Source of the DNA: an uncultured Lachnospiraceae bacterium
Lineage (GTDB): Bacteria; Bacillota; Clostridia; Lachnospirales; Lachnospiraceae
Assembly (NCBI GenBank): GCA_946414825.1
Contig: CAMKQB010000014.1
Coordinates: forward strand, 1-36,956
Reading direction: 5' to 3'
Length of the DNA stretch: 36,956 nucleotides
The notes beneath the pieces were generated by a model. It ran no database searches. It saw only the letters and a list, made by a program, of their open reading frames with translations, and was not told the DNA's origin. Positions 4,989-33,093 of this stretch are shown here, in pieces. Every line of letters begins with the position of its first letter. Within the stretch, counting starts at the first letter, position 1. The translations under genes and the position numbers were made by a program.

Positions 4989-4996
4989 AGATTGTA

Positions 4997-5072
4997 GCTG
5001 TGTAACTGACGGATTTGAGTGGAGTTTACCACGGGAAGCACAGTATATAGATGAAAAACCGGCCGTCTGGGT
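4997..5072 (+). ncRNA. ZTP (ZMP; pfl motif) riboswitch aptamer
   Basis: The leader carries the hallmark pieces of the pfl motif in order. GTAACTGACGG is followed by a GTGG/CCAC hairpin, then the conserved CCACGGGAAGCAC block. A short linker leads to the 3' domain CCGGCCGTCTGGG. P1 forms between CTGTG (4998-5002) and CACAG (5039-5043). The class binds ZMP/ZTP, the AICAR derivatives that build up when 10-formyl-tetrahydrofolate is short, and commonly switches on purH and one-carbon genes. The gene just downstream belongs to the AICAR-to-IMP steps, so identity and context agree. The 3' half of the aptamer also forms the 5' arm of a terminator, which gives an ON switch: ligand-bound aptamer blocks termination. 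Confidence 0.9.
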
Positions 5073-5095
5073 AAATGTTTGCCCAGATGGCTTTT
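5062..5095 (+). terminator. Riboswitch-controlled intrinsic terminator
   Basis: GCCGTCTGGG (5062-5071) pairs with CCCAGATGGC (5082-5091) around a 10-nt loop, followed by TTTT. Its 5' arm is the same sequence that completes the ZTP aptamer, so terminator and aptamer are mutually exclusive. Confidence 0.85.
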
Positions 5096-5151: not shown

Positions 5152-5865
5152 ATGAAAAGAGTTGATTTAGCAGCAGAAATCGGAGCAACCAGCTATCCAG
5201 GAAGAGGTATCGTTATTGGATGTACTCCAGATGGTAAGAAGGCAGCAATTGCTTACTTTATTATGGGACGTTCTGAGAACAGTCGTAACAGAGTATTCGT
5301 AACAGAAGGCGAGGGGATCAGAACTGAAGCATTTGATCCAGCAAAGCTTGAGGATCCAAGCCTTATCATATATGCACCAGTAAGAGTTCGTGGTACAGAT
5401 ACTATCGTAACAAATGGTGATCAGACAGATACTATTTTCGAGAATATGGAGCAGGGAGATACCTTTGAGGAGTCTCTTAGAAATCGTGAGTTCGAGCCAG
5501 ATGCTCCTAACTATACACCTAGAATATCTGGTGTACTTCATGTAGAAGATGGATACACATATGAGATGTCTATCCTTAAGTCAAATAACGGTGATCCAGA
5601 TCAGTGCTTGAGATTCACATTTAGCTATGATAATCCAAAGGCTGGTGAGGGACATTTCATTCACACATATATGGGCGACGGAAATCCACTTCCAAGCTAT
5701 GAGGGAGAGCCAACACCTGTTGAAATTAAGACGGATGACCTAGATACATTTACAGAAACAGTTTGGAACGCCCTTAATGAAGATAACAAAGTATCCCTCT
5801 TCACACGTTTTATCGATATTGAAACAGGTAAAGTAGAAACCAAGATAGTAAATAAAAATAATTAA
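5152..5865 (+). CDS. purO: IMP cyclohydrolase, PurO type
   Basis: The protein has 237 residues and begins with the landmark TSYPGRGIVIGCTPDGKKA, followed by YFIMGRSENSRNRVF near residues 37-52. These are typical of the PurO-like IMP cyclohydrolase family first known from archaea (PF07826). It should close the ring of FAICAR to give IMP, the last step of de novo purine synthesis, in the cytoplasm. The start ATG follows GAAGGAGGAATGAA. It is the first gene behind the ZTP riboswitch and 57 bases ahead of a free-standing AICAR formyltransferase, so the two genes supply the activities normally fused in PurH. The family call is by motif; a divergent Ntn-hydrolase of other function is possible but unlikely in this setting. 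Confidence 0.85.
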   Translation: MKRVDLAAEIGATSYPGRGIVIGCTPDGKKAAIAYFIMGRSENSRNRVFVTEGEGIRTEAFDPAKLEDPSLIIYAPVRVRGTDTIVTNGDQTDTIFENMEQGDTFEESLRNREFEPDAPNYTPRISGVLHVEDGYTYEMSILKSNNGDPDQCLRFTFSYDNPKAGEGHFIHTYMGDGNPLPSYEGEPTPVEIKTDDLDTFTETVWNALNEDNKVSLFTRFIDIETGKVETKIVNKNN

Positions 5866-5922: not shown

Positions 5923-7101
5923 ATGAACGAATTAGAACTTAAGTATGGATGTAACCCAAATCAGAAGCCTTCTAGAGTTTTCATGAAGGACGGAAGTGAT
6001 CTTCCCTTTACAGTACTTTGTGGTAAGCCAGGATATATAAATCTTCTGGATGCCTTCAATGGTTATCAGTTAGTTAAAGAACTGAAGAAGGCAACTAACC
6101 TTCCAGCTGCTACATCTTTCAAGCATGTTTCTCCAGCAGGTGCTGCTGTAGGTCTTCCTCTTACAGATGTAGAGAAGAAGATATACTGGGTAGAGGATAT
6201 GGGAGAGCTTAGCCCACTTGCATGTGCATATGCTAGAGCAAGAGGTGCAGATAGAATGTCCTCTTTTGGTGATTTCATCTCACTTTCAGATGTATGTGAT
6301 GCTGATACAGCAAAGCTTGTAAAGAGAGAGGTTTCAGACGGAATCGTTGCTCCAGGATATACAGATGAAGCTCTTGAGATTCTTAAGTCTAAGAAGAACG
6401 GAAACTATTGCGTAATTCAGATAGATCCAAACTATACACCAGCTCCAAGTGAGACAAAGGATGTATACGGAGTTACATTTGAACAGGGAAGAAATGAGCT
6501 CGTTATCGATGACAACTTCTTCTCAAATATTGTTACAGAAGCTAAGGAGCTTCCTGACTCAGCTAAGATCGATCTTACTATCGCAATGATTACTCTTAAG
6601 TATACACAGTCAAACTCAGTATGCTATGTAAAGAATGGCGCTGCTATCGGTATCGGTGCTGGACAGCAGTCACGTATCCATTGTACAAGACTTGCAGGTG
6701 ACAAGGCTGATAAGTGGTTCCTTCGTCAGTCCCCTCAGGTTCTTAACCTGCCTTTCAAGGCTGATATCAGAAGAGCTGATAGAGATAATACAATTGATGT
6801 ATATATCAGTGATGATTATGAGGATGTAATTGGTGAAGGCGAGTGGCAGAAGTACTTCACAGAGAAGCCTGCTGTTTTCACAAGAGAAGAGAGAAAAGAA
6901 TGGCTTAAGAAGAACACAGGAGTATCCGTTGGTTCTGATGCTTTCTTCCCATTTGGAGATAATGTTGAGAGAGCTCACAGAAGTGGTGTTGAGTTCATTG
7001 CTCAGCCAGGTGGATCAATCAGAGATGATAATGTAATTGAAACCTGTAACAAGTATGGAATAGTAATGAGCTTCACAGGTATCAGACTTTTCCATCACTA
7101 A
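5923..7101 (+). CDS. purH: Free-standing AICAR formyltransferase (PurH C-terminal-domain type)
   Basis: The protein has 392 residues and corresponds to the transformylase half of PurH/ATIC without the cyclohydrolase half. It transfers the formyl group of 10-formyl-THF to AICAR. The catalytic Lys-His pair lies in SFKHVSPAGAA (near residues 65-75). YARARGADRMSSFGDF, REVSDGIVAPGY, KYTQSNSVCY and GIGAGQQSRIHCTRLAGDKA are all intact, as is the RLFHH C-terminus. From memory these segments resemble the animal ATIC transformylase domain more than E. coli PurH, which has KHxNPCGxA at the catalytic site. It lies 57 bases behind purO, with an AAAAGGAGA site. Most likely it is co-transcribed with purO under ZTP control. 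No cyclohydrolase remnant is visible upstream in frame. Confidence 0.93.
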   Translation: MNELELKYGCNPNQKPSRVFMKDGSDLPFTVLCGKPGYINLLDAFNGYQLVKELKKATNLPAATSFKHVSPAGAAVGLPLTDVEKKIYWVEDMGELSPLACAYARARGADRMSSFGDFISLSDVCDADTAKLVKREVSDGIVAPGYTDEALEILKSKKNGNYCVIQIDPNYTPAPSETKDVYGVTFEQGRNELVIDDNFFSNIVTEAKELPDSAKIDLTIAMITLKYTQSNSVCYVKNGAAIGIGAGQQSRIHCTRLAGDKADKWFLRQSPQVLNLPFKADIRRADRDNTIDVYISDDYEDVIGEGEWQKYFTEKPAVFTREERKEWLKKNTGVSVGSDAFFPFGDNVERAHRSGVEFIAQPGGSIRDDNVIETCNKYGIVMSFTGIRLFHH

Positions 7102-32286: not shown

Positions 32287-32371
32287 GCAGATGTGGCGGA
32301 ATTGGTATACGCGCATGATTCAGGTTCATGTCCACATTACGTGGGTTCGGGTTCGAGTCCCGTCATCTGCA
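32287..32371 (+). tRNA. tRNA-Leu (anticodon CAG)
   Basis: The 7-bp acceptor stem GCAGATG/CATCTGC closes an 85-nt cloverleaf. The D arm follows GGCGGAATTGGTA. The anticodon stem CATGA/TCATG holds the loop TTCAGGT, giving anticodon CAG. A long variable arm (TCCACATTACGTGGG) marks it as class II. The T arm contains GGTTCGAGTCC. The discriminator is A, as in leucine tRNAs. CCA is not encoded. It would read CUG codons. Confidence 0.96.
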
Positions 32372-32382
32372 AAAATAAATTA

Positions 32383-32566
32383 TTATTTGTAATAGGCAAG
32401 TTTTTAAGCTGACGCCGAGAAAGCTTGCTTTCAGAGGCGGCTGGTTAGAAACTTGACGTACTTGCGAAGCAAGAATCAAAAATGCATGAAATAAGGCAGT
32501 CTGCGAAGCAGACGGATAAGCGCGTTAGCGCGACCTTATGAATGCAGTTTTGATTATTACAAATAA
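32383..32566 (+). repeat. 184-bp inverted-repeat element made of nested small hairpins (MITE- or structured-RNA-like)
   Basis: It is bounded by a perfect 12-bp inverted repeat, TTATTTGTAATA (32383-32394) and TATTACAAATAA (32555-32566). Inside, CAAGTTT (32397-32403) pairs with AAACTTG (32449-32455) around a GAAAGC/GCTTTC hairpin. CTTGC-GAA-GCAAG follows at 32461-32473. Then ATCAAAA/TTTTGAT, TGCA/TGCA and ATAAGG/CCTTAT make a long interrupted stem (32475-32496 with 32534-32554). That stem encloses GTCTGC-GAA-GCAGAC and GCGC-GTTA-GCGC hairpins. No open frame is seen. The gap between the tRNA and greA (32372-32607) is otherwise AT-rich. It could be a mobile-element remnant or a structured RNA; I cannot decide from sequence alone. 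Confidence 0.75.
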
Positions 32567-32607
32567 ACATATAGTAATATGAAATATGAAATACGAAAGG
32601 AGCTCCC

Positions 32608-33093
32608 ATGTCAGAAGAAAAAAAGCACATAGTCACATATGAAGAACTTAAAAACCTTGAGGACGAATTATCTGATCTCAAAGTTAATCGTCGTAAAGAA
32701 ATAGCTCAGAAGATTAAAGAAGCTCGTGAACAGGGAGACTTATCAGAGAACGCTGAGTATGATGCTGCTAAAGATGAGCAGAGAGATATAGAGACACGTA
32801 TTGCAGAGCTTGAGAAAATCCTCAAGAATGTAGAAGTTATCGATGAAGATAGCTTAGATACAGAGTCTGTATATATTGGATGCAATGTACACTTTGTTGA
32901 TATGGAGTCTAAAGAAGAGTTCACATACAAAATATCCAGTTCAACTGGTGCTAACATTCTTAAAGGAAAGATTTCTAACGAATCTCCACTTGGATCTAAG
33001 CTGATTGGTTCTAAGGTAGGACAGGTAGTGACAGTTGATGCTCCAAACGGAAGACATAGTTATAAGATACTTGATTTTAAGAGAGAGAAATAA
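32608..33093 (+). CDS. greA: Transcription elongation factor GreA
   Basis: The protein has 161 residues, the normal size. The N-terminal coiled coil (residues 9-80) carries the acidic tip EQGDLSENAEYDAAKDEQ, which reaches into the secondary channel of RNA polymerase to trigger cleavage of backtracked RNA. The C-terminal FKBP-like domain has ISNESPLGSKLIGSKVGQVV and ends SYKILDFKREK. The ATG follows AAAGGAGCTCCC. A terminator lies directly behind it, so greA and lysS are probably separate transcripts at least in part, although the greA-lysS neighbourhood is common in Firmicutes. Confidence 0.97.
   Translation: MSEEKKHIVTYEELKNLEDELSDLKVNRRKEIAQKIKEAREQGDLSENAEYDAAKDEQRDIETRIAELEKILKNVEVIDEDSLDTESVYIGCNVHFVDMESKEEFTYKISSSTGANILKGKISNESPLGSKLIGSKVGQVVTVDAPNGRHSYKILDFKREK

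What the first reader, a model, noticed from the sequence alone, without database searches (positions are those of the whole stretch)
32383..32566. Hairpin-mosaic element with 12-bp terminal inverted repeats between tRNA-Leu and greA
Seen in sequence: nearly every base of 184 bp fits into a nested fold with perfect outer arms, a three-way-junction-like core and several 3- or 4-nt-loop hairpins of the forms TTGC-GAA-GCAA, TCTGC-GAA-GCAGA and GCGC-GTTA-GCGC. There is no reading frame. Inference: either a non-autonomous transposable element that moves by its inverted ends, a modular repeat assembled from small palindromes, or a structured RNA cotranscribed with the tRNA. The bulges look the same on both sides of the long stem (GAA opposite GAA), which is unusual for chance.
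Basis: partly seen in the sequence, partly recalled or inferred. Interest (0 to 1): 0.75.

Follow-up and report, generated by a model that had tools for sequence, protein, structure and literature searches.

The report
Mobile hairpin repeat behind tRNA-Leu
The 184-base folded segment behind a leucine tRNA gene is one copy of a scattered repeat family of gut bacteria, related to a catalogued 'small RNA' whose better-known copies carry the scars of a jumping DNA element.

Summary
The fold is real (z -5.3) and covaries: among 7 copies at the same tRNA-Leu/greA site, 28 of 67 pairs change on both sides (14.9 in shuffles). It is not single-copy. A covariance model finds 3 copies in this genome and matches in 46 of 61 genomes of the genus. 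Rfam places it, below threshold, in RF01699 'Clostridiales-1 RNA' (27.2 bits, cut-off 48). RF01699 matches 161 of 299 genomes of the host's family, with 31, 93 and 111 matches in three. 17 of 19 classic copies with a readable 3' end carry 7-8-bp target duplications. Classic RF01699 thus behaves as a miniature transposon. The window type is a rearranged sister: hairpins in another order, paired ends, no clear target duplication, none found near 20 RAYT-like genes, and placed just behind the 3' end of a co-oriented gene (30 of 39 loci within 15 nt of the stop). Its loops match known extra-stable DNA loops. Two near relatives seem to have deleted it. Most likely: a transposon-derived, co-transcribed post-gene hairpin block; function inferred.

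The parts
32287..32371 (+). tRNA-Leu(CAG), the co-oriented gene just upstream; the element's outer arm starts 11 nt behind its 3' end
   Evidence: ARAGORN; Rfam tRNA 51.8 bits
32383..32566 (+). whole element: window-type relative of Clostridiales-1 (RF01699)
   Evidence: own-model match 32382-32566, 206.6 bits, expected because the window is in the model; RF01699 match 32388-32561, 27.2 bits, under the cut-off of 48
32383..32394 (+). 5' outer arm / terminal inverted repeat, 12 nt
   Evidence: fold; 6 of the 12 pairs of this helix change on both sides among the 7 same-site copies
32555..32566 (+). 3' outer arm / terminal inverted repeat, 12 nt, perfect complement of 32383-32394
   Evidence: fold; same helix as above
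32397..32455 (+). hairpin 1: long stem with G[CTTG]C tetraloop at 32424-32427; stem sequence varies greatly between loci but stays paired
   Evidence: fold; 9 of 12 pairs of its basal helix change on both sides; variability seen by eye
32461..32473 (+). hairpin 2: CTTGC-GAA-GCAAG, GNA triloop
   Evidence: fold; its 5 pairs are formed in all 7 copies
32475..32554 (+). hairpin 3: long stem with GAA/GAA internal loop (motif CATGA..GAATG shared with classic RF01699) and an inner three-way junction
   Evidence: fold; pair counts; a loose pattern of the motif in 67 of 83 window-type and 50 of 51 classic copies
32499..32513 (+). sub-hairpin GTCTGC-GAA-GCAGAC, GNA triloop
   Evidence: fold
32520..32531 (+). 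sub-hairpin GCGC-GTTA-GCGC, a GNNA loop that is not GNRA
   Evidence: fold; loop tally over copies
32608..33093 (+). greA (transcription elongation factor GreA), downstream gene
   Evidence: ORF of 161 aa; Pfam GreA_GreB_N 91.2 bits and GreA_GreB 77.9 bits

Best explanation
The element is one copy of a dispersed, non-autonomous, modular hairpin repeat, a genus-level sister of the Clostridiales-1 family (RF01699). Shown: the classic family, in the two genomes where its 3' end could be read for most copies, is flanked by 7-8-bp target duplications; it reaches about 100 copies per genome and shows no clear orientation preference, so it spreads as a miniature inverted-repeat transposon. Shown: the window type shares its hairpin modules, lies at 49 separable loci in the sample examined, sits mostly just behind stop codons (here behind a tRNA) of co-oriented genes, and keeps its pairing by compensatory change while its sequence drifts. 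Inferred: it is transcribed as part of the upstream unit and acts as a stem-loop block at the 3' end of the upstream message or tRNA precursor. There it would stop or trim exonucleases, and perhaps hold up ribosomes near a stop codon as REP does, while separating the downstream gene (here greA). At this site it came in before these species split, was inherited, and is dispensable, because two near relatives appear to have deleted it. How the window type moves is unknown.
For: Fold z -5.3. Covariation among 7 same-site copies: 28 of 67 pairs and 52 cells changed on both sides, against 14.9 and 18.7 in shuffles, 0 of 500 as high; slid structures give 4-7 pairs. Matches in 46 of 61 genomes of the genus, at most 20 in one genome with 43 candidates scored each, and 3 in the own genome. 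RF01699 match over model ends 1-166; a sibling in the own genome, L150, is over the RF01699 cut-off (53 bits) and also matches the window-type model (68.1 bits). RF01699: 161 of 299 genomes of the host's family; 93, 31 and 111 matches in three genomes; target duplication of 7 bp or more in 17 of 19 copies with a defined 3' end, control mean 4.4%, highest of 1000 control rounds 23.5%; one element-free orthologous site in G382. Window type: 39 of 49 separable loci have a co-oriented upstream gene, 30 of these 39 start within 15 nt of its stop, and 21 of 27 tandem loci do so against 7.1 expected for uniform placement in the gap. Presence/absence at a second locus, cls-rpmE.
Against: No clear target duplication for the window type: allowing 15 nt at each end, 12 of 84 have a 6-bp repeat (8.1 in control), 5 a 7-bp (2.6) and 3 an 8-bp one (0.8), the three being L238 and two units of the tandem array L225. 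Its own transposition is therefore not demonstrated. No transposase partner found: no window-type match in 20 stretches around RAYT-like genes, and G349, with 20 matches, has no Y1_Tnp match. The window falls under the Rfam cut-off. No expression data. The loop chemistry and the low G-U share (127 of 5361 cells) do not favour an RNA over a single-stranded DNA. Compensatory changes in hairpins can also come from templated repair without selection. Two relatives lack the element, so it is not essential here.
Confidence: 0.62

Rival explanations
1. The element is selected for its fold as single-stranded DNA (at replication forks, in transcription bubbles or during transposition), not as RNA; RF01699 would then be a DNA structure filed as an RNA.
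For: Of 211 triloops in 83 window-type copies 200 are GNA (13 of 83 in flanks); all 18 C-G-closed tetraloops are GNNA and only 6 of these GNRA; 49 of 57 G-C-closed tetraloops are CNNG; no UNCG. These are the loop classes described for very stable DNA hairpins: GNA/GNNA mini-hairpins, GCGAAGC melting at 78 C (passages of PMC4686876); d(cGNNAg) and d(gCNNGc) (title of Nakano 2002 in the reference list of PMC2984261). G-U is only 2.4% of cells.
Against: G(CUUG)C is also a stable RNA loop (recalled). Sense-strand placement behind stop codons fits RNA more simply. Classic copies have fewer GNA loops (28 of 69 triloops), and G-U exceeds A-C there, 81 to 18. G-U also exceeds A-C in the window type, 127 to 65. 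Copies are related, so loop counts are not independent. No tRNA control for the G-U share was obtained.
Confidence: 0.25
2. A decaying copy of an ordinary MITE with no function at this site; its pairing is kept by templated (quasi-palindrome) repair and gene conversion, and its place behind stop codons only reflects which insertions survive.
For: Deletion-like losses in L039 and L040; classic copies show no clear orientation preference (+E+ 13, -E- 13, +E- 9, -E+ 17, two incomplete); among same-site copies 52 cells changed on both sides against 8 on one side only, as templated repair would give; tandem or truncated duplicates beside several copies (seen).
Against: The loops keep G..A on one strand only (0 of 210 GNA triloops on the other strand), which repair of stems does not explain. 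21 of 27 within 15 nt of the stop against 7.1 for uniform placement, and 27 sense to 7 antisense tandem loci, exceed simple survival in gaps. The element is kept at this site in 11 distinct sequences (14 matches, three of them records fetched twice).
Confidence: 0.3
3. A free-standing small RNA or riboswitch-like leader of greA.
For: Covariation; the element lies 41 nt before greA; its relative is filed in Rfam as 'Gene; sRNA'.
Against: The same structure stands behind many unrelated genes. Promoter-like matches in the region are at chance level, 3 found against 2.9, and none lies between tRNA and element on the + strand. It is absent between tRNA-Leu and greA in L039, L040, L047 and L049.
Confidence: 0.08

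Closest known systems
Clostridiales-1 RNA (Rfam RF01699)
   Same: Alignment reaching both ends of the model, outer stem, first hairpin with CTTG loop, hairpin with CATGA..GAATG internal loop, a GAGCRCGAAGYGCGGA-like module in part of the copies of both types
   Different: 27.2 bits, under the cut-off of 48; order of hairpins 2 and 3 differs; mostly GNA loops; no TGATACC ends, no GACCCCWACATC tail (by inspection) and no clear target duplication; mostly behind stop codons in sense
MITEs with extensive secondary structure: BOX and RUP of Streptococcus pneumoniae; bcr1-bcr3 of the Bacillus cereus group
   Same: Short, many copies; inverted ends paired in the fold and modular build (BOX; passages of PMC3049150); often in UTRs and intergenic parts of operons (bcr; passages of PMC3446304)
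   Different: No sequence comparison made here; the window type is strongly sense-oriented right behind stop codons and drifts with compensatory changes
REP/BIME with RAYT transposases
   Same: Palindromic intergenic repeats; in E. coli those within 15 nt of a stop codon stall ribosomes (passages of PMC12306157)
   Different: Much larger composite fold; no window-type match in the 20 stretches around RAYT-like genes; the RAYT flanks that could be read show other hairpins, several of a GGGGACGGTTCT/GGGGACAG type

Membership tests
Clostridiales-1 RNA (RF01699) | score at or above the curated cut-off of 48 bits | tested here: not met
   27.2 bits; same-site copies L046 37.7 and L044 33.1, the other same-site loci of that call (L010, L011, L012, L014, L041, L043) not listed at E <= 1; sibling L150 in the own genome 53
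Clostridiales-1 RNA (RF01699) | whole consensus architecture present | tested here: inconclusive
   alignment runs from model position 1 to 166, but 33 model positions have no counterpart and 54 residues stand against 15 model positions
Clostridiales-1 RNA (RF01699) | hairpin order as in the consensus (CTTG hairpin, GA/GA hairpin, end hairpin) | tested here: not met
   in the window type the GA/GA hairpin comes last (by inspection)
MITE | terminal inverted repeats, short, no coding capacity | tested here: met
   12-bp perfect arms, 184 bp, no ORF of 80 aa or more
MITE | target-site duplication | tested here: not met
   none at the window (listing); window type as a whole 12 of 84 with a 6-bp repeat against 8.1 in control; met by the classic sister family, 17 of 19
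MITE | many dispersed copies with presence/absence between relatives | tested here: met
   46 of 61 genomes; cls-rpmE site
MITE | autonomous partner with the same ends | tested here: inconclusive
   none between paired ends in 15 classic-end loci inspected for ORFs (the integrase beside L189 lies outside its short element); no end pair 1-3 kb apart noticed by eye in the list; for the window type only Y1_Tnp was searched
REP/RAYT | copies flanking the RAYT gene | tested here: not met
   0 matches at E <= 1 in 20 stretches around RAYT-like genes, some cut by contig ends
conserved structured RNA | compensatory base changes | tested here: met
   on a MAFFT alignment with the structure of one of its members
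conserved structured RNA | transcribed | not testable with these tools

The most novel reading that the evidence does not exclude
Clostridiales-1 and its window-type sister are not small RNAs but a large superfamily of transposable DNA whose selected form is a single-stranded DNA fold, built from hairpin cassettes closed by the extra-stable DNA loops d(GNA), d(cGNNAg) and d(gCNNGc). One branch moves by target-duplicating transposition; the other has specialised in landing behind the 3' ends of co-oriented genes, possibly on the exposed non-template strand of transcribed DNA.
Probability: 0.2. Interest if true: 0.78.

Novelty: new variant of a known kind. Interest (0 to 1): 0.56.

Why it matters
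An Rfam family annotated as 'Gene; sRNA' in many genomes of one gut and rumen family is, on the evidence of its target duplications, a transposable element; automatic pipelines may therefore be calling repeats as small RNAs. Its sister branch adds roughly 180-bp hairpin blocks directly behind stop codons and a tRNA in a genus known here mainly from rumen metagenomes, where they could change RNA ends and operon balance. The loop statistics give a rare handle on the open question whether such repeats are selected as RNA or as single-stranded DNA, and that can be tested in a test tube.

Tried and rejected
BLASTN in the own genome: only the window itself is convincing; this would have suggested a single copy and was corrected by the covariance model. 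HUH transposases: Y1_Tnp occurs in 36 of 61 genomes, not in the own genome and not in several copy-rich ones (matches: G349 20, G348 11, G342 9, G364 9, G365 8; none), while other copy-rich ones do have it (G355 16 and 4, G354 11 and 6, G001 10 and 1); it does not track the element, but no correlation was computed. RAYT-like genes: 20 stretches fetched, no window-type match; of the 12 whose flanks were printed the output was cut, and flanks of about ten were readable. Autonomous element for classic ends: pattern search in three genomes; 15 loci inspected for ORFs, no transposase seen between paired ends. L189 has a phage-integrase-family gene beside it, but the element there is a short derivative and the gene lies outside its ends. 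Deletion derivatives with about 8-bp duplications were seen (L195, L201, L208, by inspection). Replication-strand bias of classic copies in G310: judged by eye from the list, no bias seen, not computed. Empty sites of classic copies: L176 against G382 gave one; L155 against G374 gave no clean reading. An rpmE leader family of Rfam at the cls-rpmE loci: no match at gathering level in 9 loci, so 'leader' there rests on position and inspection; the gene is ribosomal protein L31 by Pfam. tRNA control for the G-U share: the script's parser found no tRNA and the control was dropped. PMC4081043 was listed for RF01699, but the term is not in its main text. PMC2267715 was looked at by passages for bcr1 and clostridial stem-loop families. 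Literature: searches found no paper in the held library that describes Clostridiales-1 as mobile, judged from listings and, for two of the papers, passages; supplementary files were not read. Dropped rows: of 30 classic loci 11 had no recognisable 3' end (8 of 10 in G310) and were left out of the duplication count; of 58 classic loci 4 with short flanks were left out; of 86 aligned window-type matches 82 had 400 bp on both sides and entered the context count, 84 had 60 bp and entered the duplication test. The window-type sources were part of the hits, mostly its best-scoring ones, not all of them.

Full report
OBSERVATION. The segment 32383-32566 folds as described. Its outer arms are a perfect 12-bp inverted repeat, and RNA MFE of 32372-32607 is -72.2 kcal/mol against -47.5 +/- 4.6 in 200 dinucleotide shuffles, none as low. 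The anatomy is an outer stem closing three hairpins: hairpin 1 (32397-32455, CTTG loop), hairpin 2 (32461-32473, GAA loop) and hairpin 3 (32475-32554, GAA opposite GAA, with two sub-hairpins with GAA and GTTA loops). It starts 11 nt behind tRNA-Leu(CAG) and ends 41 nt before greA.

SAME SITE IN RELATIVES. Copies lie between the same tRNA-Leu and greA in L010, L014, L041-L046 and others. In the later sample 14 matches, 11 distinct sequences, cluster at this site. Seven distinct ones, aligned by MAFFT (A2) and counted with the window's structure, give 92.1% standard pairs, 28 of 67 pairs and 52 cells changed on both sides, against 14.9 +/- 2.3 and 18.7 +/- 3.3 in shuffles (0 of 500 as high) and 4-7 pairs when slid; only 8 cells changed on one side. 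One measure did not exceed the shuffles: further pair types, 38 against 39.5. Two loci with GreA 99% identical lack the element: L039 has 48 nt and L040 65 nt between tRNA and greA. L040 keeps ATTATTACAAATAAT, what deletion between the ATTATTA repeats in the two arms would leave; L039 reads like a deletion between CAAA..TAA repeats. So the absence looks like loss, not an ancestral empty site (inference). L041, L043 and L044 carry extra truncated 3' copies (by inspection).

NOT SINGLE-COPY. BLASTN sees only the window convincingly in its own genome. A covariance model from A2 (R1) finds 3 copies there and matches in 46 of 61 genomes of the genus at E <= 0.01, at most 20 in one genome; only 43 candidates per genome were scored, so counts are lower bounds.

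RELATION TO RF01699. Rfam at its gathering score gives nothing at the element. At relaxed threshold the segment aligns from position 1 to 166 of Clostridiales-1 RNA with 27.2 bits, cut-off 48, leaving out 33 model positions and setting 54 residues against 15. L046 gives 37.7 and L044 33.1; the other same-site loci in that call were not listed. The own genome has two matches over the cut-off, 111.8 and 53 bits; the weaker, L150, also matches R1 with 68.1 bits. Both types share CTTG (70 of 83 window-type, 50 of 51 classic) and a loose CATGA..GAATG pattern (67 of 83, 50 of 51); a GAG..CGNAG..CG module pattern is in 24 of 83 and 16 of 51. The order of the hairpins differs (by inspection). I call it a sister type, not a member by Rfam's own rule.

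WHAT CLASSIC RF01699 IS. It matches 161 of 299 genomes of the host's family, 130 over the cut-off, 0 of 14 controls; three genomes hold 93, 31 and 111 matches. Host names of fetched greA relatives are Lachnospiraceae and, for the closest, 'Eubacterium sp.' or Lachnospiraceae metagenome bins. Thirty copies were read with flanks (10 per genome). Nineteen have a recognisable 3' end after the RF01699 match (..GACCCCWACATC, up to 3 substitutions). With the left end set at GATACC, 17 of 19 are flanked by an exact direct repeat of 7-8 bp, against 4.4% on average (at most 23.5% in 1000 rounds) when left and right flanks are re-paired. The 19 are 9 of 10 from G078, 8 of 10 from G271 and 2 of 10 from G310, whose 3' module differs. 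The two ends form imperfect inverted repeats (GATACCAGGGTCAAAAGG and GATGTWGGGGTCAAAAGG). Short derivatives with about 8-bp duplications exist (L195, L201, L208, by inspection). One orthologous site in G382 is element-free, but its junction has diverged too far to read the target. Classic copies show no clear orientation preference: +E+ 13, -E- 13, +E- 9, -E+ 17, two incomplete, of 54. I read this as a MITE. The 2010 paper that named the motif lists it as probably RNA and probably not cis-regulatory (passages of PMC2864571). Searches found no paper in the held library that treats it as mobile.

WHAT THE WINDOW TYPE DOES DIFFERENTLY. I aligned 86 matches from 84 selected sources. (1) No clear target duplication: allowing 15 nt at each end, 12 of 84 with a 6-bp repeat against 8.1 in control, 5 against 2.6 for 7 bp, 3 against 0.8 for 8 bp, the last being L238 and two units of a tandem array. 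(2) Among 33 copies chosen for starting with [AGT]CT[AT]TT, the ends read ACTATTYRCAGTA, with TT before the left end in most. (3) Placement: 82 loci fall into 49 clusters of non-similar flanks. In 39 the upstream gene is co-oriented; 30 of the 39 start within 15 nt of its stop codon (overlaps up to 18 nt counted). For tandem genes 21 of 27 do so against 7.1 expected if uniform in the gap. Sense to antisense tandem is 27 to 7. Gene calls were simple longest ORFs, and one locus stands for each cluster. The window's own place behind a tRNA fits the same rule, though it is counted there as a miss. (4) At cls-rpmE (L31), G000 has a sense copy behind cls and G347 and G012 have shortened ones. Of 18 loci searched, an antisense copy stands just upstream of the rpmE part in L299 (G347), L300 (G012), L311 (G345), L315 (G348), L314 (G355, shorter) and L310 (G016, 34.4 bits); a remnant is seen by eye in G363; G005, G341 and G354 show none. 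(5) Hairpin 1 differs almost completely in sequence between loci yet stays paired (by inspection).

RNA OR DNA. In 83 distinct window-type copies pairs are 92.0% Watson-Crick, 127 G-U and 65 A-C of 5361 cells (the alignment is fitted to the model). For 51 classic copies G-U is 81 and A-C 18 of 2082. The given strand folds better than its complement in 76 of 83 window-type copies (RNA energies) and 80 of 83 (DNA energies), and in 53 of 54 classic ones, so the structure belongs to one strand. Loops of the window type: 200 of 211 triloops are GNA (13 of 83 in flank controls, 0 of 210 on the other strand); 18 of 18 C-G-closed tetraloops are GNNA, only 6 of them GNRA; 49 of 57 G-C-closed ones are CNNG; no UNCG. 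In classic copies 28 of 69 triloops are GNA, 11 of 14 C-G-closed tetraloops GNNA, and 54 of 54 G-C-closed ones CNNG. GNA and GNNA mini-hairpins are described as extraordinarily stable DNA, GCGAAGC melting at 78 C (passages of PMC4686876). Nakano 2002, seen as a title in the references of PMC2984261, names d(cGNNAg) and d(gCNNGc). That the RNA forms are much weaker is recalled. This favours a DNA role but does not prove it; copies are related and CUUG is also a good RNA loop (recalled).

MOBILISER. Y1_Tnp is in 36 of 61 genomes, none in the own one, and absent from copy-rich G349. No window-type match lies in 20 stretches around RAYT-like genes; the flanks that could be read carry other hairpins. 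The window type's mobiliser is unknown.

HOW IT MOST LIKELY WORKS. Shown: dispersed family, structural constraint, placement behind co-oriented 3' ends, transposon nature of the sister family. Inferred: co-transcription with the upstream gene and action as a 3' stem-loop block. Precedents: E. coli REPs within 15 nt of a stop codon stall ribosomes (passages of PMC12306157); BOX/RUP repeats have extensive folds likely to affect co-transcribed genes (passages of PMC3049150), and bcr1-bcr3, MITE-like, often lie in UTRs and intergenic parts of operons, though only bcr3 correlated with decay rate (passages of PMC3446304). The alternative that pairing is kept by templated repair cannot be excluded.

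VERDICT. It is a new variant of a known kind (structured miniature interspersed repeat). The main gains are the re-reading of an Rfam sRNA family as a MITE and a testable RNA-versus-DNA question. The facts mended on the second reading did not call for a change of odds.

Noticed in passing
window 4992-5079 (+): ZMP/ZTP riboswitch (RF01750, 54.5 bits) just upstream of two ORFs at 5152-5865 and 5923-7101 that look like purine-synthesis enzymes (impression from recall, not searched).
   Followed up: no
L299, L300, L310, L311, L314, L315 (cls-rpmE region): An antisense window-type copy stands just upstream of rpmE in six of 18 loci searched, between promoter and gene where printed, inside what looks like a leader hairpin.
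   Followed up: partly
L225:1243-1681 (-): Tandem array of shortened (117-nt) copies separated by an identical 12-nt spacer TAACCATCAATC.
   Followed up: no
L321-L332: RAYT-like genes of the genus have long hairpins close by, several of a GGGGACGGTTCT/GGGGACAG type, apparently a separate REP system.
   Followed up: partly
L238-L297: Hairpin 1 is almost unrelated in sequence between loci yet long and nearly perfectly paired; how such stems are renewed is unexplained.
   Followed up: no
window 32567-32607 against L010: Window and G012 share a 98% identical element, yet the short spacer between element and greA is unalike.
   Followed up: no
L049:2675-2832 (-): A weaker window-type match (47.3 bits) in antisense just upstream of tRNA-Leu in a genome without the element before greA.
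   Followed up: no
L016 (hairpin 1 of the copy at 1405-1587): Hairpin 1 reads like an intrinsic terminator (AACAGGGTTC..GAACCCTGTTTTTATTT), suggesting that some copies end transcripts.
   Followed up: no
G310 classic copies (L133, L153, L157, L160, L163, L166, L169, L172): Their 3' module (mostly GGTGCGGAA..CCACARGGAAA..) differs from the ACATC end of the other two genomes, and they were left out of the target-duplication count.
   Followed up: no
L189:1526-2590 (-): A phage-integrase-family gene (PF00589, 114 bits) stands beside a short classic-end derivative in G078; probably a chance neighbour.
   Followed up: partly
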